From NCBI GenBank assembly GCA_009885955.1, contig VFJS01000083.1, positions 1 to 55,883 of the forward strand: 55,883 nucleotides of DNA. Reading direction: 5' to 3'. Positions within the stretch are counted from its first letter, which is position 1. Every line of letters begins with the position of its first letter. Made by a program: the position numbers and the translations under genes. The DNA comes from Spirochaetia bacterium (GTDB lineage Bacteria > Spirochaetota > UBA4802 > UBA5550). This document shows, one piece after another, positions 47,259-55,883 of this stretch. The notes below the pieces were generated by a model. The model searched no databases. It was not told the origin of the DNA and saw only the letters and a list, made by a program, of their open reading frames with translations.

Positions 47259-49016
47259 ATGGCCAGGAAAAAAAATACAAGTCATGATAATTTTCCCGGC
47301 GACTGGGTAATCCTGAAAATTGATGCAGGGATTACATTCCCCGGCTCAGAAAAGGGAATATTTTATCAGACAATTATCCTTGAAAAAAAATCATCAACCA
47401 GCCTTTCATACAGTATAGTGATACGCCAGGGCTCCATGAAGAATGGGCCCCTTAGCAGTTATAAAAAAAATGTCAGCATTAAAAATATAACAGCCCCCTT
47501 CTGGCTCCCCCCCTCTATTATGAATATCATCACTGCGGATTTTAAAAAAAAATCCGCAGTGGCGCGGAAGGACATGATAAAACTGAACGGTGTGACATTC
47601 AATTGTAATGTTCTTGAAAACAAAACCGAAAATGGCGATATCATAAAACAATGGGAATGCGTGAATTCCCCGTTAAATGCCCCTTTAAAGATATCAATAA
47701 AAAGCAATGGGAAAGAGAAGGTTATACTATCCCTTTATAAACATGGGGATCTTACACATAAAATCCCAGGCGGTAAAAAGTCATATATCCCGAAATATTA
47801 CTCCCCCGATTCCCTGAAACTCAATATAAACAGGAACGGCCTTGATAATTACCTTCATACACAGGCTGAACTTTTATACAAACACAGCCTCTCAATGAAG
47901 GGAATTATTCTTGATACGCACAGTAAAAAAATTATCAATTTTAATAATGTAATTAAAGCCTTAAGGCATATTGATGTCATATGTATTGGCGAGATTCATG
48001 AATCTGCGGAATGTCATAAAATGGAAATTGATATCATAAAAAACATGCACCGCGTGAATCCCCGTATCATCATCGGGTTTGAGATGTTTTACCGGACCTT
48101 TTTTATTCAGAAGGGCCTGGATGATTTTGTATCAGGAAAAATCGATGAGGATACCTTTAGAAAAAAAATTTATGATACCTGCTGGAACCCCCGGTGGTAC
48201 TGGCTCTACCGTGAAATTTTTCTTTTCGCCCGGGAGAAGGGGATAAAAATGACAGGCCTCAACCCCCCCAGGGAACTCATGAAAAAATTCAGGGAGAATT
48301 ATCATGATATGACCTCTGCTGAACAGGAATGGTTTGCCAGGGAGATCGATTATACGGATGAACGGCACAAGGCAATAACCATGAGAAATTTCAGCGTAAT
48401 GGGTAACATGGGGATGGTTACGGAATCGCTCTACCCGTCGCAATGCATATGGGATGATACAATGGCAGAATCCATTGTCAATCAGATACGGGAGAACCCC
48501 GGGGCTCAGGTGATTGCATTGACAGGCGGTTTCCATGCCGGATTCCGTGTTACCGTGGAGGGGCGTGCATTGAAGAAGGCGGAGAGTGCAGGCATATCCT
48601 TCTCAAGCAGGGTACTCTTTCCCCATGAATCCGCCTGGCTTGATTCCTCCTGCATCGAGGAGTTCGTGAGGCTTGATATAGCAGATTACATCTATTATGT
48701 CGATCCGAACGAGGAAATGAACGGATATGACGGGGATAAGGATGACAGGCTGAGCTGGATGAAGGCATATAAGCTTCTCAATGACGGCATGATCGATGAA
48801 GCTGAATCCTCGCTTAAAAGTGATGATTCCGAAATGGGCGAAAAAATTCTTATGAGGATCAGAATCTTCAAAAAAGCGAAACAGCTTGCCATGGGCGGCA
48901 AATATGACGAGGCCATATCCCTTGCCACAGAAATCCCGGAAGCCTATGCCAGGGGGAGGATGATATGGCTTGATAAAATTCATAAAACCGGAATTACAGG
49001 AGTATGGCCCGATTAA
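47259..49016 (+). CDS. Protein with C-terminal ChaN-like (heme-binding, DUF399) domain
   Basis: The product is 585 residues without a signal peptide. From residue ~225 onward it matches the ChaN family: VICIGEIHESAECHKMEID, IIIGFEMFYR, ARE- and GLNPPREL-like segments, VTESLYPSQCIWDDTMA and IALTGGFHAGF. The last two carry the histidine and aspartate-rich surroundings that bind heme-like or metal ligands in EreA/ChaN-like folds. The first ~200 residues are a separate, unrecognised beta-rich domain, and the last ~80 residues are helical, TPR-like. Usually ChaN is an exported lipoprotein, so a cytoplasmic version with extra domains is odd. Confidence 0.65.
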   Translation: MARKKNTSHDNFPGDWVILKIDAGITFPGSEKGIFYQTIILEKKSSTSLSYSIVIRQGSMKNGPLSSYKKNVSIKNITAPFWLPPSIMNIITADFKKKSAVARKDMIKLNGVTFNCNVLENKTENGDIIKQWECVNSPLNAPLKISIKSNGKEKVILSLYKHGDLTHKIPGGKKSYIPKYYSPDSLKLNINRNGLDNYLHTQAELLYKHSLSMKGIILDTHSKKIINFNNVIKALRHIDVICIGEIHESAECHKMEIDIIKNMHRVNPRIIIGFEMFYRTFFIQKGLDDFVSGKIDEDTFRKKIYDTCWNPRWYWLYREIFLFAREKGIKMTGLNPPRELMKKFRENYHDMTSAEQEWFAREIDYTDERHKAITMRNFSVMGNMGMVTESLYPSQCIWDDTMAESIVNQIRENPGAQVIALTGGFHAGFRVTVEGRALKKAESAGISFSSRVLFPHESAWLDSSCIEEFVRLDIADYIYYVDPNEEMNGYDGDKDDRLSWMKAYKLLNDGMIDEAESSLKSDDSEMGEKILMRIRIFKKAKQLAMGGKYDEAISLATEIPEAYARGRMIWLDKIHKTGITGVWPD

Positions 49017-49142: not shown

Positions 49143-50747
49143 ATGAAATACCTTGTCATGACGTTCATCTCTTTATCCCTGGTAATTCCTGTATGGCCGC
49201 AAGGCCGTGGAATTTTCGATGCTGCGAAGAAAGGCGACGTTACAACAATAACATCTCTGATTAACAGCGGTACGGATTTGAATGGAAGAAATTCATACGG
49301 GGATACCATCCTTCATGTTGCCGCACTGAAAGGGTATCTTTCCATTGTCCAGCTTCTTATAAATAAAAAATCCGATGTACATTCTGAAAATTCAGGAAAA
49401 AGTACGCCCCTTCATCTTGCTGCTGACAGGGGGCACCTGGATGTTTTGGAATTTCTGATAAAAAGCGGTGCCAGAGTAAATTCCAGGGACAAATGGGGCA
49501 GAACACCACTGCATCTTGCTGCTGGAAAAGGGCATGGTGAAGTGGTAAAAAAACTTTTATCCCTTGGTGCCGATAGCGGGATAAAAGATCTATCCGGAAA
49601 GACCCCTCTCTACCATGTATGCAGATTAAAAACTCTCAATAGAATCCATATTAATATTGTATCGATGCTGATAAAAAACGGATCCGATGTAAATATCCAG
49701 ATTTCAAGGAGCACTGAAGGATATGTAGAGAATGAAAATATACATTCATCGGAAATTGGAAAAGCGCCTCTGCACTGGGCTGTAATAAATGCTAATACTG
49801 AATTAGCCGAGTTACTGATAAACAGCAGGTCAAAAGTTGATATAGCGGACGGTAATGGCGTTACACCCCTTCATCTGGCCGCATATAAAGCTGACAGTAA
49901 AATTATTGAAATGCTTATTCTCAAAAGTGCCAGCATTAATTCTAAGGATAAAGAAAATGACTCCCCGCTCCATCTTGCAGTCAAAACCGACTTCCCTCTT
50001 AATGGTAATTACTGGGGAAGGAAAAACTGGATAAAAATGCTTAACGGACGGGATGCTTATTTCAATGCCCTTGATAAGAAAAAAAACAGGCTGGGAATAA
50101 CTGCCCTTCTAATAAAAAAGGGAGCTGATGTAAATGCTGAAGGTAAAAGCAAAATGACTCCGCTTCACTGGGCCTCGTATAACGGCTTTATTGAAATTGC
50201 GAAATTACTGCTGCTGAACAAAGCAAAAATTGATCTAAAGGACAGAGACGGCATGACTCCCCTTTACCTCGCCCTTCGTGAAGGCCACAGGGAATTATCC
50301 CGATTCCTTATACTCAGTGGCGCTGATGTGAACAATGTTATTCCCCGGCTGCCCGATGAGGAAAAGGAAAAAAACAGTGCGGAGGAAATAAGGGCCATAA
50401 CTCCCATGCACAGGGCAGTTGAAAACGGTTTTGCAGATATCGTTGAGATGATGCTTAAAAAAGGGGCCAGGTTTGATATTAAAGACAAACACGGCAGGAC
50501 GCCGTTATACATCTCACTGCAGAAAAATCAGACCGGAATCTGCAAACAGCTGATACATTCAGGAGCTTCTGTCAATGTCAGGGATGAATACGGGAATTCG
50601 CTCCTTCATATTGCTTCGGAAAAGGGGAACACTGAGATCGCAAGGCTGCTCGTAAAAAAGGGTGTTGATACAAAAGCAAAAAATGAAGAAGGCAAAACAC
50701 CTGGAGACCTGGCATCAATCAGGGAGATGAAGGATATTTTAAAATAG
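49143..50747 (+). CDS. Exported ankyrin-repeat protein
   Basis: A 534-residue protein with a signal peptide (MKYLVMTFISLSLVIPVWPQ). The rest is about a dozen ankyrin repeats with the usual TPLHLAAxxGH and LLxxGAD turns, for example TPLHLAADRGHLDVLEFL and TPLHLAAGKGHGEVVKKLL (each cut). Some central repeats carry inserts (residues ~165-200 and 290-320). It is probably a periplasmic or surface interaction scaffold. It is followed by a convergent VOC gene, and the intervening 70 bases contain a GC-rich hairpin-free spacer. Confidence 0.9.
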   Translation: MKYLVMTFISLSLVIPVWPQGRGIFDAAKKGDVTTITSLINSGTDLNGRNSYGDTILHVAALKGYLSIVQLLINKKSDVHSENSGKSTPLHLAADRGHLDVLEFLIKSGARVNSRDKWGRTPLHLAAGKGHGEVVKKLLSLGADSGIKDLSGKTPLYHVCRLKTLNRIHINIVSMLIKNGSDVNIQISRSTEGYVENENIHSSEIGKAPLHWAVINANTELAELLINSRSKVDIADGNGVTPLHLAAYKADSKIIEMLILKSASINSKDKENDSPLHLAVKTDFPLNGNYWGRKNWIKMLNGRDAYFNALDKKKNRLGITALLIKKGADVNAEGKSKMTPLHWASYNGFIEIAKLLLLNKAKIDLKDRDGMTPLYLALREGHRELSRFLILSGADVNNVIPRLPDEEKEKNSAEEIRAITPMHRAVENGFADIVEMMLKKGARFDIKDKHGRTPLYISLQKNQTGICKQLIHSGASVNVRDEYGNSLLHIASEKGNTEIARLLVKKGVDTKAKNEEGKTPGDLASIREMKDILK

Positions 50748-50816: not shown

Positions 50817-51389
50817 TTATGTTATATTCCTGATACTGGAGACAAGTTCTTCCATCTCATCACTGTTCAAATTGAGATTAACCTTTCCCCCGCCAGGGTG
50901 CCTGAAACCGATCCTGCACCCATCCGCAGTCTTTTCTACAACAAATTTTCTGTTCCCGGAAAATTTAACATCCTTTGATAGCCAGTCATCGGCATTAAAT
51001 TCAGCAAACTGTATAAGCACTCCGAATGCATCCCTGGGATGGACAAATATTTCCTTCCATACACCGCCATAATCCTTTCCTTCAAAAAAAGGGATATTTC
51101 TTGTTTGTAGTAATTCCCTTGTTTTTTCAATATCATCCACCTGGAAGGTAATATGATGAACCCCGCCGTTTCTACCCTCGAGAAATTTGTCTATGAAACT
51201 CCCCTTTCCTGTGGGGGCGATAATCTCCAATCTGCTCAAGTCCCCAACGGAAAATATCTCCCAGAAAAATTTCTTATCATCATCTGAACCGTTGGAACCG
51301 GGAACAGCTCCAAAAATTTCCGAAAAGAACCCCTTTGCCTTTTCAAAATCATTTACTGCAAGCGAGACATGATCAATTCTAAGTATCAT
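50817..51389 (-). CDS. VOC/glyoxalase-family protein (methylmalonyl-CoA epimerase-like)
   Basis: From the ATG at 51389 (AAAGGA site upstream) the product is 190 residues. An upstream ATG at 51431 adds an unlikely basic leader. MILRIDHVSLAVNDFEKAKGFF starts the first beta-alpha-beta-beta-beta unit with the metal-binding histidine H7 (IDHVSLAV), and NGGVHHITFQVDDIEKT starts the second with its histidine pair. The glutamate of RLEII and DAFGVLIQF match the metal sites of methylmalonyl-CoA epimerases. The extra ~55 C-terminal residues (IGFRHPGGGKVNLNLN) are unusual for that enzyme. The substrate is uncertain. Confidence 0.8.
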   Translation of the reverse strand: MILRIDHVSLAVNDFEKAKGFFSEIFGAVPGSNGSDDDKKFFWEIFSVGDLSRLEIIAPTGKGSFIDKFLEGRNGGVHHITFQVDDIEKTRELLQTRNIPFFEGKDYGGVWKEIFVHPRDAFGVLIQFAEFNADDWLSKDVKFSGNRKFVVEKTADGCRIGFRHPGGGKVNLNLNSDEMEELVSSIRNIT

Positions 51390-51558
51390 ATACTTTTCCT
51401 TTTTTTCAAGCAGCCTTAGCTTTAAATCCAATATTATCAGACAGCAGAAGCATTTAAAATACTATGACATTATCCTAAACCCGAAAACGATTGGCAACAT
51501 TTTATTTCAGAATGCATAGCATTTAAAAGGAACTGAAATAAAAAATTATATTTTTTTC

Positions 51559-53169
51559 TTATAAAACAACTTTTCCACCAAGTTCAATCCTTTCCCTGTA
51601 TGATCTCTTCCCTGACAAATAACTCAAATACCTGACAAATAAATGATCCTTCTTATACCTGAATTCAAGCATTGCAGAAATCTTACCGGTTGTTTGATTC
51701 TCCACAGAGCCATCGGAGATAGACTCTGGATCATATTTCCCCCTTGAGTAGATAGTGTTGCCATTTATTATTGTGAGACGCTCATATTTCATCCTGATAT
51801 TCAAGTTATCGAGGAAATGAAGAAAAAATCCCCCGCCAAAATTACGGGAATAACCGCTGTACTCGGACCACTGGCATAGACCTGAAAATTCAAGTTCAAA
51901 GTTATCAACGACATATTTATTTGCATCGCCTTTTATCTGCCATTTCAAACTCCGCCCTTTGTCATTTTCATATGAAATTTTTGTCAGGTAGAAGGCGGCC
52001 TTTTCCTTCCTGCTGATTCCATATTTGAAAAATATTCCCTCCCTGATTATAAGAGGAAGCAGATAATCATACCTCCCCGGTGTAATCCTTTTTTCAGATG
52101 AAAGGACTGCCCCGGCTGTAACAGGATCATACAGCTTTAATGAACTTTCAAATTCAAACAGCTTTTCCGGATAATTCTTCCCGGAACTATAGAGGGAATA
52201 ATAGTTTATTCCAGTCTGCTTCCAGGCCATTGATAGGAAAAATAAGGGGAATTGAAATTTAAACCCGCACAAAAACCCGTAATCCATGGACAGTTCTTCT
52301 GCATTTTCTCCGGGTCTGAACTCCCTCCTGCTCATTCCAAGTTCAAAAAAAATCAGCGAATAGTCATCAGAATATTGTGAAAAGCACCCGTATCCGTAAA
52401 ACCTGTGAAGCCCTATACCGGTATTATCAGAATAATAGTCCCAGGAAATATTTTCTCTTCCTGTTCCCATAATTTCAGTCTGGAATGCGTAGGCCTGTAT
52501 TGAAAAATATTTCCCGTATTTAATCCCAGTCATGAACCCGATGTCATTTATAGATACCGGTTCAGGATGAGAAATATCCTTTTCAATTTTCGCATTTATT
52601 GAATTCAAGTTGCTGCCTGCAAACCCGTTATCATAATCATCCATGCTGATGTATCTTCTGCGGGTAGAATAAAAAATATTTATGGAAATTTCCATACTAC
52701 CCATAGGATAATTCCATAAACCGGCTATACCGTTGAATGAATAAATCGGATTTCCTGAATTTTCAGGCTGGAAGGGTTCACTCCTGGATACTGCCATTGA
52801 TGAAACAAACTGATCTGGCGGAATATACTTTTTTTTCCCCATGAGCAGTCCGGTTCCAAAATTAGCATTGTAATTGCCTAAAATAAATCTGTAATTTCTT
52901 GCAATATCAAATAAAATCAGATTCCATGTGTACATCCCCTCATTGTTGTTAATATACTGGTGGCAGAAATTAAAGCTGCTTAATTCACTGAACCTCACTC
53001 TGACTCTTTCCCGGTACAGGCTCTTTTCATTCTCATCATAATCAACGATATCTCTTTTATAGACCGCCTCAAGTTCAATCTCTTCAATGGAAGAACCCCC
53101 ATGGGATGCCGTCCCGGAAAATACTAATAACGCAAGGATTGAAAAAAATATGAATCTTATTCGAAACAT
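51559..53169 (-). CDS. Putative outer-membrane beta-barrel, last gene of an envelope operon
   Basis: A 536-residue product with a signal peptide (MFRIRFIFFSILALLVFSGTASHG). The whole mature chain is built of alternating strands with many aromatic residues and short turns (LYRERVRVRFSELSSFNF, YRFILGNYNANFGTGLL, WQIKGDANKYVV), consistent with a large barrel. Its start overlaps the stop of the helix-hairpin-helix gene by 13 bases, so the three genes 55529-51559 are one operon. No plug or TonB box is evident. The transported or displayed substrate is unknown. Confidence 0.65.
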   Translation of the reverse strand: MFRIRFIFFSILALLVFSGTASHGGSSIEEIELEAVYKRDIVDYDENEKSLYRERVRVRFSELSSFNFCHQYINNNEGMYTWNLILFDIARNYRFILGNYNANFGTGLLMGKKKYIPPDQFVSSMAVSRSEPFQPENSGNPIYSFNGIAGLWNYPMGSMEISINIFYSTRRRYISMDDYDNGFAGSNLNSINAKIEKDISHPEPVSINDIGFMTGIKYGKYFSIQAYAFQTEIMGTGRENISWDYYSDNTGIGLHRFYGYGCFSQYSDDYSLIFFELGMSRREFRPGENAEELSMDYGFLCGFKFQFPLFFLSMAWKQTGINYYSLYSSGKNYPEKLFEFESSLKLYDPVTAGAVLSSEKRITPGRYDYLLPLIIREGIFFKYGISRKEKAAFYLTKISYENDKGRSLKWQIKGDANKYVVDNFELEFSGLCQWSEYSGYSRNFGGGFFLHFLDNLNIRMKYERLTIINGNTIYSRGKYDPESISDGSVENQTTGKISAMLEFRYKKDHLFVRYLSYLSGKRSYRERIELGGKVVL

Positions 53170-54482
53170 ATTTTAATGATCTCTTTCTTCCTGGCTTCCG
53201 TAAGTTCAGGAAGGGTATGTATTACATTGATGAGTTGTTTCCGATCCCCCTTAATGGCAGCCTCTGAAATAATGAGCGATAGATTTGCGCTCAATCCTGC
53301 TTTGATAAGCCCCTCAAAAATTCTCTTCCTGGCATCAAGTGAAATACCTTTTGCTCCGGAACCGCCCCTGGTTTTATTCATCCCCTTTTTTTCATTTTTA
53401 TTTCCCCATTCCTTTTTATCCTCAACAAGGCCGAAAACAAAATCCATAAGCCTGTCAATATCCTTGCCGGTTAAACCAATCTGGCTAAGGGATTTTTTTG
53501 ACAGGGGCCCGATTATTTCCCTGTGCCTGGTAATCCTGTTAATAAGCCCGTCATTGAGTATGGGAATTTTTTTCAGTTCATCTTCTGAGCATGTATTGAT
53601 GTTGACCCTTTCAGACCTTATGTCCTCAGTATTTTTTTTTCCTGACCCGTAATAATCGATATTATCATACTTAACCCTGTTATAACATGTTGTGAACCCC
53701 AGTGAATGGGTAATCCCCAGGAATGAATGATATCGAACTGAATATGAAAGAATAAAATTATCATAAGCAACAGATAGCGCTGCTGCATATGTCGACGCCT
53801 CCCTTGAATAACCGCCGCGGAGCATGAGAAAAGGGAGAAGCCTCGTTTCAAAAGAGAAATAATCGGCAGTTCCGGTGATCGACCAGTTCCTGTTCCACGA
53901 CAGGGAGAAGCCGCGCACCGGCATCAGGGCAATGCCGAACCTTTTTTCCGGATAGAGAAGGTCTTCCCTGTTTCCATGTATCATGGAGATGATATTGTCC
54001 TGCTCATAAGAAAAATCAAGCCAGCTGAAGGGGGTTACATGAACAGACCCCCGGTAATCCAGGAGCCTGCTTTTAAATGAAATCTCACCTGATGTTATGC
54101 TTATACAGTAATAGCTTGCCCCTGCGCCTGCGGAAATCCATTTGACGGGCATTATCCCGGCATTGGCTTCAAATATATTCTCCATGTACTCCCGTATCCC
54201 GAACCTTCTCCATGCGAACTGATAGCCGTATATTCCCTTTGACGATCCCGCAGCGATATTGCTTGAATAGAGGCCGTCAATGGAGTAGGGATTGTCCATA
54301 GAAACATGAAGATAGGTATTGTCCGCCAGCGGGAGATATGCGGGATTGGTGATTGAGCCTCCGTCCTGGTACTGGGATACAGCGGTATAGGATGGAAAAA
54401 GGTTTACCGGTGAACCGCCTTTGTATTCAAAGGATGATATGACAATCCTGGCATAAAATATCAGCATCACTGACTTAATCAT
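53157..54482 (-). CDS. Barrel-like protein with C-terminal helix-hairpin-helix (ComEA-like) domain
   Basis: A 441-residue product. Residues ~30-270 are strand-rich with PorV/PorQ-like features (NPAYLPLADNTYLHVSM; YGYQFAWRRFGIREYM). After a linker comes VNINTCSEDELKKIPIL (helix-hairpin-helix, ComEA-type) near residue 295, then IGPLSKKSLSQIGLTGKDI. ComEA-type HhH binds DNA without sequence preference, so this barrel could be linked with DNA handling at the envelope. A short hydrophobic N-terminus (MIKSVMLIFYARIVIS) is present, with no classic cleavage site. It is between the lamin-tail-like gene and the second barrel. Confidence 0.65.
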   Translation of the reverse strand: MIKSVMLIFYARIVISSFEYKGGSPVNLFPSYTAVSQYQDGGSITNPAYLPLADNTYLHVSMDNPYSIDGLYSSNIAAGSSKGIYGYQFAWRRFGIREYMENIFEANAGIMPVKWISAGAGASYYCISITSGEISFKSRLLDYRGSVHVTPFSWLDFSYEQDNIISMIHGNREDLLYPEKRFGIALMPVRGFSLSWNRNWSITGTADYFSFETRLLPFLMLRGGYSREASTYAAALSVAYDNFILSYSVRYHSFLGITHSLGFTTCYNRVKYDNIDYYGSGKKNTEDIRSERVNINTCSEDELKKIPILNDGLINRITRHREIIGPLSKKSLSQIGLTGKDIDRLMDFVFGLVEDKKEWGNKNEKKGMNKTRGGSGAKGISLDARKRIFEGLIKAGLSANLSLIISEAAIKGDRKQLINVIHTLPELTEARKKEIIKICFE

Positions 54483-54494
54483 AATCGGGCCTCC

Positions 54495-55529
54495 CTACTT
54501 ATACCTGCTCAGGATTATGAATATTTTTTCAGCCTGTGATATTCTCCTGCCTGTTGAGACAGCTTCTATGTGCCCGATGTACATGGATGTATGGGAGGAA
54601 GCCCTGCTCATGAACGGCCTCCATTGTATTGAGAAGTCCCCTGGCGGAACAGACCTGTACAGCTGGGACTCGTGAATAAGAATGCCTGTTGAGGTGAAGA
54701 CCCTGAATTTAATGTTGCAGATGTCAAGGACCCTCAGTTGGATGTTTGTAGTGTCACTCCTGCCGCGGCCCGGGATAATAGTTATCCTTTTCCTGAGGCA
54801 TTTAAACAACCTTTTCCCGCCGGAATTACTTGAAAAAATATTCGGCTTCCCCGGAGTCTGGAAACTGGTGATTGCAAAATCATCAGGCCTGTTCGTATCA
54901 ATGAAGTCCTTTCTTGCTATGCTCATGTAAGGCTTCAGGCCGGTTTTCCCGATATCGACCAGGCCTGCCTGGATATTCGATTCCAGGATGTTTTTCCACT
55001 GGCCAGAGGAAATTGCATTGTCCACAGAGGACTGAATTATGCTGTTTGGATTGCCGTCGCGGTTTGAATAGGCAACAAAGTCAATGATACCACCGCTCGC
55101 GGGATTATCATCGGTATCTATTGCAACGACACCTTCAGAATTCCAGAGGCTCCCGTAGTAGTTATTGCAGTAAATATCGAGATACCCGTTATGGTTAGTA
55201 TCCCCGGTACGGTCGGTCTCATCCGGGATTCCAGGCGAGGTGAGATGGACAACGGCAAACCTGTCGTCATAGGGGGTTTCGGGCCTGTCATAGGAATAGA
55301 GAGTGATAGGTTCGGTTCCCAGGCTTTCATTTGTCCCGTAATACATGGTGACATAGAGCCTGGATATGTCAATTTTATCCCTTACGCTGCTGCTGAAAAA
55401 CAACTCCACCCAGTCGCTGCCTGTTCCCGTGGCGATTTCATTAATAATTAAACCGCTCTTTGCAGGAGATGCCACGAGTATAAATACACTGACCAGTAAA
55501 AGGCACAGGCTTTTTTTTAAACGATTCAT
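54495..55529 (-). CDS. Exported protein with lamin-tail-like (LTD) domain
   Basis: From the ATG at 55529 the product is 344 residues with a good signal peptide (MNRLKKSLCLLLVSVFILVA). A frame to 55694 is open, but those residues come from the GC-rich repeat. The mature start GLIINEIATGTGSDWVELFF is the beginning of the LTD fold (LxINEIxxxxxxDWVELxN). It continues with a D/N-rich segment (DRTGDTNHNGYLDIYCNN) that may bind calcium. The C-terminal part resembles a T9SS-style fold or flagellin-associated sandwich (IQWRPF). It is the first gene of the three-gene envelope operon; 12 bases separate it from the next gene. Confidence 0.72.
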   Translation of the reverse strand: MNRLKKSLCLLLVSVFILVASPAKSGLIINEIATGTGSDWVELFFSSSVRDKIDISRLYVTMYYGTNESLGTEPITLYSYDRPETPYDDRFAVVHLTSPGIPDETDRTGDTNHNGYLDIYCNNYYGSLWNSEGVVAIDTDDNPASGGIIDFVAYSNRDGNPNSIIQSSVDNAISSGQWKNILESNIQAGLVDIGKTGLKPYMSIARKDFIDTNRPDDFAITSFQTPGKPNIFSSNSGGKRLFKCLRKRITIIPGRGRSDTTNIQLRVLDICNIKFRVFTSTGILIHESQLYRSVPPGDFSIQWRPFMSRASSHTSMYIGHIEAVSTGRRISQAEKIFIILSRYK

Positions 55530-55730: not shown

Positions 55731-55780
55731 ATAAATTGACTATTTATATTCGCCTGCGGATGGGCATCCTGCCCGTCCTG

Positions 55781-55883
55781 TAGAGTAGAACCCGGATCCC
55801 CCCAATAATGAGTTTCACCGGGCCCCCTCGTCAAACCGTACGTGCGGTTTTCCCGCATACGGCTTTCCTATGAATTTCATCTC
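55781..55883 (-). mobile_element. 3' end of a group II intron (domains V and VI), truncated by the window edge
   Basis: On the minus strand, 55866-55833 reads AAAGCCGTATGCGG-GAAA-ACCGCACGTACGGTTT (given here in parts), the 34-nt domain V with the catalytic AGC triad, GAAA tetraloop and CG bulge. After it, GACGAGGGGGCCCGG...CCGGGTTCTACTCTA fits domain VI and the 3' splice end near 55781. The maturase gene would lie to the right, beyond the window. The 3' exon begins with a GGGCA/TGCCC hairpin (55764-55776). Confidence 0.72.

What the first reader, a model, noticed from the sequence alone, without database searches (positions are those of the whole stretch)
51559..55529. Envelope operon: lamin-tail protein, barrel + HhH, second barrel
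One operon couples an LTD-type exported protein with a barrel that carries a ComEA-like DNA-binding HhH tail and another large barrel. A DNA-binding domain on a barrel suggests DNA uptake, DNA-containing matrix attachment, or an unknown secretion apparatus.
Basis: partly seen in the sequence, partly recalled or inferred. Interest (0 to 1): 0.5.

Follow-up and report, generated by a model that had tools for sequence, protein, structure and literature searches.

The report
Paired outer-membrane barrels with HhH tail
Three adjoining genes in an uncultured spirochaete encode a surface-type protein and two outer-membrane barrels, one carrying a fold like that of a DNA-uptake protein; they may move DNA, or a surface protein, across the outer membrane.

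Summary
Three adjoining minus-strand genes encode an exported lamin-tail (LTD) type protein with a FlgD-like end, a barrel with a ComEA-like helix-hairpin-helix (HhH) tail, and a second barrel. This order of genes is in 39 of 41 loci examined; the HhH-barrel gene is in 41 of 46 searched genomes of this spirochaete order. Predicted folds: a 14-strand FadL/PorV barrel and a 24-strand barrel most like pilus-usher pores. The tail is related to ComEA, but the first-hairpin DNA-contact motif (GhG) is absent in all order members aligned. Relatives in other spirochaetes, Elusimicrobiota and Bacteroidota carry HhH on the first, the second, or both barrels, which suggests the two barrels work together. 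One related operon starts with a signal-bearing PLD-type nuclease. My best reading (0.4) is an outer-membrane portal that brings DNA to the periplasm for ComEC; the chief rival (0.3) is a small T9SS-like device exporting the LTD protein. Neither is shown. I found no description of this gene set in the open-licence papers searched.

The parts
54495..55529 (-). LTD-type exported protein with C-terminal FlgD_ig/CTD-like domain (344 aa)
   Evidence: best conserved of the three (mean column identity 54% among 23)
53157..54482 (-). FadL/PorV-fold 14-strand barrel with ComEA-like HhH tail and a second helical domain (441 aa)
53667..54434 (-). barrel domain (residues 17-272, as used in alignment A7)
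53430..53621 (-). HhH domain, residues about 288-351
   Evidence: Pfam HHH_3, ComEA match, four helices at 300-345
53160..53345 (-). second four-helix domain, residues about 380-441; aligns with the second HhH of L101; no Pfam match of its own
51559..53169 (-). 24-strand barrel (536 aa), homologous to the barrel part of HhH-barrel proteins of other spirochaetes and Bacteroidota

Best explanation
The three proteins form one outer-membrane complex that lets DNA into the periplasm. The 24-strand barrel is the pore; the PorV/FadL-type barrel sits beside it and holds the HhH tail at the periplasmic mouth, where it catches or ratchets incoming DNA as free ComEA is thought to do elsewhere; the LTD protein, exported and kept at the surface by its FlgD-like end, is a receptor or gate; ComEC then takes a strand across the inner membrane. 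Shown by computation: gene order and its conservation, predicted folds, HhH relation to ComEA, homology of the pore to HhH-barrels of Bacteroidota, ComEC in the genome. Inferred: the periplasmic side of the HhH (even strand numbers), complex formation, DNA as the substrate, the role of the LTD protein.
For: ComEA relation. In relative L101 the same gene matches the PorV/PorQ family (E 7.1e-14, 52.1 bits, below its cut-off of 90) and ComEA repeats over cut-off (TIGR00426, 84.4 bits, cut-off 53.1). Pore: 24 strands; first matches are FimD and PapC translocation pores (Z 19.4, 5.0 A, 371 residues). The HhH changes place: on the first barrel only (window order), on both (L101, L166, L168, L169), on the second only (L170 and Parabacteroides L192), as expected if it works at one shared site. 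L170's operon starts with a PLD-type protein with a signal-like start, overlapping the LTD gene by 4 bases; NucT, a PLD relative, has a mild effect in H. pylori transformation (PMC5714352, passages). LTD occurs in extracellular nucleases such as ExeM (PMC6085458, passages). ComEC in 56 of 59 genomes, the window's included. G014 and G037, at least 90% complete, have the barrel gene and ComEC but no secretin match. The stretch from residue 288 to the end is net positive in 26 of 27 proteins. Precedent: Riemerella transformation needs a predicted outer-membrane barrel, an exported protein and an HhH protein without homologues in the standard machinery (PMC8459023; abstract, passages, one section).
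Against: GhG is absent at the first hairpin in 26 of 26 order members and present at the second in 2 of 26; L101 has it only at the second, the two Elusimicrobiota proteins at the first. The LTD core is acidic in 23 of 23, and in ExeM the LTD was dispensable for extracellular DNA degradation. ComEC is nearly universal and so does not discriminate. The genome also has a secretin and a separate small ComEA-like protein (L002). The nuclease was found in 3 of 10 module-bearing genomes and is linked in one only. Among the 14 commonest flanking gene clusters none looked competence-like by eye. G021 (97% complete) and G030 (89%) have ComEC and a secretin but no operon.
Confidence: 0.4

Rival explanations
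1. A small T9SS-like export device: the PorV-like barrel binds the FlgD/CTD-like end of the LTD protein as it leaves the 24-strand pore and anchors it on the surface; the HhH is a protein-binding domain.
For: The barrel fits PorV of T9SS (8gl6_F, Z 26.7, 2.5 A, 244 residues) as well as FadL (Z 27.3; tied). Related LTD proteins carry FlgD_ig over cut-off (L101, L164) or CHU_C and Por_Secre_tail-like ends below cut-off. The LTD gene is best conserved and first in 39 of 41 loci. GhG is mostly absent. HhH parts of relatives also match T2SSK and PsbU, some over cut-off.
Against: Matches to HHH_3 and ComEA are much stronger than to T2SSK or PsbU. FlgD_ig has 4 matches in 3 open frames of the genome at E <= 0.01, so few candidate cargoes by that model. 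SprA: 0 of 59 genomes, but no control genome rang, so not decisive.
Confidence: 0.3
2. Attachment to extracellular DNA, or uptake of DNA as food, with no genetic transformation.
For: As for DNA uptake; a figure legend on DNA catabolism in marine-sediment bacteria names LTD (PMC8289736, one passage).
Against: The HhH is inferred to face the periplasm, which speaks against adhesion; nuclease linkage in one operon only.
Confidence: 0.12
3. A transporter of another large or hydrophobic substrate, in which the HhH only holds the two barrels together.
For: FadL-type barrels carry hydrophobic substrates (general knowledge); the alginate exporter AlgE is among the lower matches of the second barrel (Z 16.6).
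Against: Does not explain the LTD protein or the ComEA-like HhH.
Confidence: 0.13

Closest known systems
ComEA (competence DNA receptor)
   Same: HhH domain alignable over 39-65 residues in the order-only profile; relative L101 is over the ComEA repeat cut-off
   Different: fused to an outer-membrane barrel; GhG absent at the first hairpin in this order; NCBIfam comE 12.8 bits, cut-off 152
PorV/PorQ of the type 9 secretion system, and FadL
   Same: 14-strand fold, aligned from residues 16-20 to about 270, Z 26-27; relatives match NCBIfam PorV/PorQ below cut-off
   Different: HhH tail; partner is a 24-strand barrel; no NCBIfam PorV match for the window protein at E <= 1
Pilus ushers PapC/FimD
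   Same: 24 strands, best fold match
   Different: 8% identity; no Pfam hit; three neighbouring window genes scanned are not pilus genes
HhH-barrel proteins of Bacteroidota ('helix-hairpin-helix domain-containing protein')
   Same: homologous barrel (hhalign E 1.5e-19 over 462 columns, with six spirochaete and two Bacteroidota sequences); in Parabacteroides a PorV-like gene just upstream
   Different: HhH lies on the pore-type barrel; no listed neighbour is named as LTD (gene tables incomplete); B. finegoldii shows no PorV-like gene just upstream
Riemerella anatipestifer transformation proteins RS04920, RS04915, RS02645
   Same: exported protein + barrel + HhH protein, unlike pilus machinery (PMC8459023)
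   Different: sequence relation not tested here; the HhH protein is separate there and RS09020 (DUF1343) is needed too

Membership tests
ComEA-type HhH domain | sequence match to HHH_3 / ComEA | tested here: met
   28.8 bits, cut-off 27; order-only profile to ComEA structures E 4.9e-6
ComEA-type HhH domain | GhG hairpin for DNA contact (recalled) | tested here: not met
   first hairpin 0 of 26, second 2 of 26; the window protein has neither
ComEA protein (NCBIfam comE) | score over the curated cut-off | tested here: not met
   12.8 bits, cut-off 152.35
Lamin tail domain | Pfam PF00932 match | tested here: not met
   no hit for the window protein; relation only by profile-profile
FadL/PorV barrels | 14-strand barrel with FadL-like N-terminal part | tested here: met
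   predicted model
Type 9 secretion system | SprA translocon | tested here: inconclusive
   0 of 59 but no control rang
Type 9 secretion system | C-terminal sorting domain on the cargo | tested here: inconclusive
   T9SS models below cut-off in relatives
Chaperone-usher pathway | usher family match in Pfam | tested here: not met
   no Pfam hit; chaperone and pilin genes of the genome not searched
Pilus-based natural transformation | a secretin present wherever the system is | tested here: inconclusive
   35 of 41 operon-bearing order genomes have a secretin match, 6 do not, 4 of these 6 under 90% complete
Natural transformation | DNA uptake phenotype | not testable with these tools
   needs a culture

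The most novel reading that the evidence does not exclude
A widespread, undescribed outer-membrane DNA portal: a PorV-type barrel and a 24-strand pore with the ComEA-like ratchet built in, plus an LTD surface protein, shared in varying forms by spirochaetes, Elusimicrobiota and Bacteroidota, and serving as the missing outer-membrane step of pilus-independent natural transformation.
Probability: 0.25. Interest if true: 0.85.

Novelty: new variant of a known kind. Interest (0 to 1): 0.6.

Why it matters
How DNA crosses the outer membrane in bacteria without a full pilus system is open: for five Endomicrobium genomes the authors write that it is not clear, though two have a near-complete Tad system (PMC8809381, passages), and Riemerella uses proteins unlike the standard machinery (PMC8459023). 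A compact gene set with a large barrel and a built-in ComEA-like domain is a concrete candidate that can be deleted and tested in Bacteroidota grown in laboratories. If it exports the LTD protein instead, it would be a minimal device related to PorV, also worth having.

Tried and rejected
Pfam and NCBIfam scans of the second barrel gave nothing. Its profile in the PDB gave designed toroid proteins (best E 1.4e-4), antibody and Mlh1 chains, which I take as chance (that alignment included the L101 protein). LTD profile: no PDB match at E <= 1. ComEC as a co-occurrence test was useless because it is near universal. The SprA search had no positive control. Flanking genes: 14 commonest clusters judged by eye only. 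The nuclease lead from L170 did not generalise, and its best NCBIfam match is the DISARM PLD protein DrmC (64.2 bits, cut-off 133), ahead of NucT (55 bits, cut-off 297). In the order of G181 the HhH barrel is in 2 of 31 genomes, G181 included. tblastn of the window's second barrel in plasmids: no match. Paper searches: (no paper); in the listings (20 of 2,437 shown, 12 of 22, 20 of 23) nothing describes this gene set. PMC10434189 (passages) names a PorV/PorQ and an HhH protein only in expression tables. Pore width was not measured, because model coordinates are not given to scripts. The VIA lists cannot exclude other folds. Odds left unchanged.
Full report
What is there. The window is one whole contig (G000:C66) of a 4.77-Mb, 117-contig draft genome. 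Three minus-strand genes run head to tail: 54495-55529 (344 aa), 53157-54482 (441 aa), 51559-53169 (536 aa); the first two are 12 bases apart, the last two overlap by 13 bases.

First protein. Pfam finds no LTD in it, but its family profile (23 order members) aligns with seven LTD-type proteins at probability 99.2, E 1e-19, through both the LTD and the C-terminal part. Of those seven, five are over Pfam's LTD cut-off and two below it; FlgD_ig is over cut-off in two. It is the best conserved of the three (mean column identity 54%; 39% for 26 HhH barrels; 36% for 28 second barrels). Its N-terminal core is acidic in 23 of 23 (-12 to -26) and its C-terminal part basic in 23 of 23 (+5 to +18); a conserved D/N-rich stretch suggests metal binding (inference). 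An acidic core speaks against direct DNA binding.

Second protein. AlphaFold2 with 30 sequences gives a 14-strand barrel (residues 56-266), helices at 300-345 and at 380-440, and low-confidence linkers. The barrel matches FadL (2r88_A, Z 27.3, 2.2 A, 240 residues) and, tied, PorV of the type 9 translocon (8gl6_F, Z 26.7, 2.5 A, 244 residues); chains of Bacteroidota BAM complexes follow (Z 22.8 to 23.7). The HhH: Pfam HHH_3 just over cut-off. By profile of order members alone the best PDB matches are EEPD1 (3.5e-13) and ComEA 8dss (4.9e-6) and 8dfk (6.9e-5); with L101 added 1.1e-17, 5.6e-9 and 1.2e-8. GhG is absent at the first hairpin in 26 of 26 order members and present at the second in 2 of 26 (L072, L082); L101 has it at the second only; Elusimicrobiota L157 and L164 have it at the first. 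From residue 288 to the end the charge is positive in 26 of 27.

Third protein. 24 strands by my count of the model's elements, pLDDT 87. The best matches are usher pores FimD (3ohn_A, Z 19.4, 5.0 A, 371 residues, 8% identity) and PapC (18.7); TonB-dependent receptors also score in Foldseek. No Pfam hit. Both barrels have even strand numbers, so both ends should face the periplasm (inference), and so should the HhH.

Conservation. The second gene is found in 42 of 59 genomes and the third in 41 of 59, the window's own counted. With a barrel-only profile the second gene is in 51 of 392 phylum genomes: 41 of 46 of this order, 10 of 346 outside it, some of the latter weak (down to E 5e-6) and possibly other FadL-type barrels (the profile includes L101). 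The five order genomes without it are G007, G021, G030, G038 and G043; of these only G021 is at least 90% complete. In 39 of 41 loci (window plus 40 of the 41 other genomes positive; G035 not fetched) the genes lie in the order LTD, HhH barrel, barrel on one strand; the others are L103 (contig ends) and the variant L101. In named genomes the LTD profile gave 47 loci: 34 of this kind (33 titled as spirochaetes, one 'uncultured bacterium'), of which 29 show all three genes as called frames, 3 show the two barrels just after the LTD match, and 2 are cut by contig ends.

Wider family. In other spirochaetes the third gene has an N-terminal HhH: over the Pfam cut-off in L101, L166, L167, L168, L169 and L170, below it in L171. 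The L101 form matched in 8 of 392 phylum genomes at E <= 1e-8, its own included, some over the HhH part only. Its barrel family is homologous to the window's third protein (hhalign 99.2, E 1.5e-19, 462 columns). tblastn with the L101 form finds four Bacteroidota records in the plasmid collection; the two with annotation there read 'helix-hairpin-helix domain-containing protein'. Their HhH is over cut-off in Parabacteroides distasonis (29.3 bits) and below in Bacteroides finegoldii (25.5). In P. distasonis the gene just upstream matches the order-only HhH-barrel profile (51.3 bits) and the barrel-only profile (63.8 bits), in a 10-sequence set, and NCBIfam PorV/PorQ below cut-off (35.6, cut-off 90). 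B. finegoldii has no such gene there. In 2 of the 13 non-spirochaete loci, both Elusimicrobia (L157, L164), the LTD protein is followed at once by a barrel with HhH.

So the HhH sits on the first barrel only (window order), on both (L101, L166, L168, L169), or on the second only (L170, Parabacteroides). A domain that can sit on either partner suggests that the two barrels work together.

Function. L170 adds a protein with a signal-like start and two PLD domains with HKD motifs readable in the sequence, overlapping the LTD gene by 4 bases; its NCBIfam matches (DrmC, NucT) are below cut-off. Among 10 module-bearing genomes a relative is found in 3 (G000, G169, G181) and is linked only in G181. 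ComEC is in 56 of 59 genomes, secretin in 43 of 59. Of 41 operon-bearing order genomes 35 have a secretin match and 6 do not; of the six, G014 and G037 are at least 90% complete and have ComEC. This allows, but does not show, a pilus-independent route. I put DNA uptake at 0.4 and T9SS-like export of the LTD protein at 0.3.

Literature (passages unless said). Riemerella transformation needs RS04920, a barrel, an HhH protein and a DUF1343 protein besides ComEC, DprA, ComF and RecA (PMC8459023; abstract, passages, section 20). Endomicrobium (Elusimicrobiota by recall) has competence genes but no clear outer-membrane step (PMC8809381). ComEA is proposed to retain DNA in the periplasm in pilus systems (PMC6877725). 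Prokaryotic LTDs occur with hydrolases and nucleases (PMC6085458; PMC5118699), though the LTD of ExeM is dispensable for extracellular DNA degradation.

Noticed in passing
window 55780-55867 (-): Group II intron match (Rfam RF00029, 52.6 bits), about 250 bases upstream of the operon and near the contig end.
   Followed up: partly
window 49143-50747 (+): Protein of 534 aa made largely of ankyrin repeats (11 Pfam stretches), with a signal-like start by eye.
   Followed up: no
window 50817-51431 (-): Glyoxalase-like gene downstream of the operon; of 41 loci only L065 has a homologue, also just downstream.
   Followed up: partly
window 47259-49016 (+): ChaN/Tiki-like haem-binding domain protein.
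   Followed up: no
L002 1486-1782 (-): Separate 98-aa ComEA-like protein with a signal-like start in the same genome, beside a TPR-like protein by eye.
   Followed up: no
L004 1444-3099 (-): Protein with a cysteine cluster like that of radical SAM enzymes (by eye) and a C-terminal HhH in the same genome.
   Followed up: no
L201 6921-7964 (+): The window's genome has a PLD-type nuclease relative (35% identical to the L170 one), unlinked to the operon; the search counted one TGA in the matched stretch.
   Followed up: partly
G342:C87:6521-7234: A genome of another family (f35) holds a strong match to the barrel (E 2.7e-71), with a 414-aa frame as in family f7: transfer or a misplaced genome.
   Followed up: no
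L192 8921-9700, L193 8890-9663: A radical SAM gene follows the HhH-barrel gene in both annotated Bacteroidota records.
   Followed up: no
L164 8699-9274, L157 3788-4369: A similar 191-193 aa protein follows the HhH barrel in both Elusimicrobia loci; no Pfam hit.
   Followed up: no
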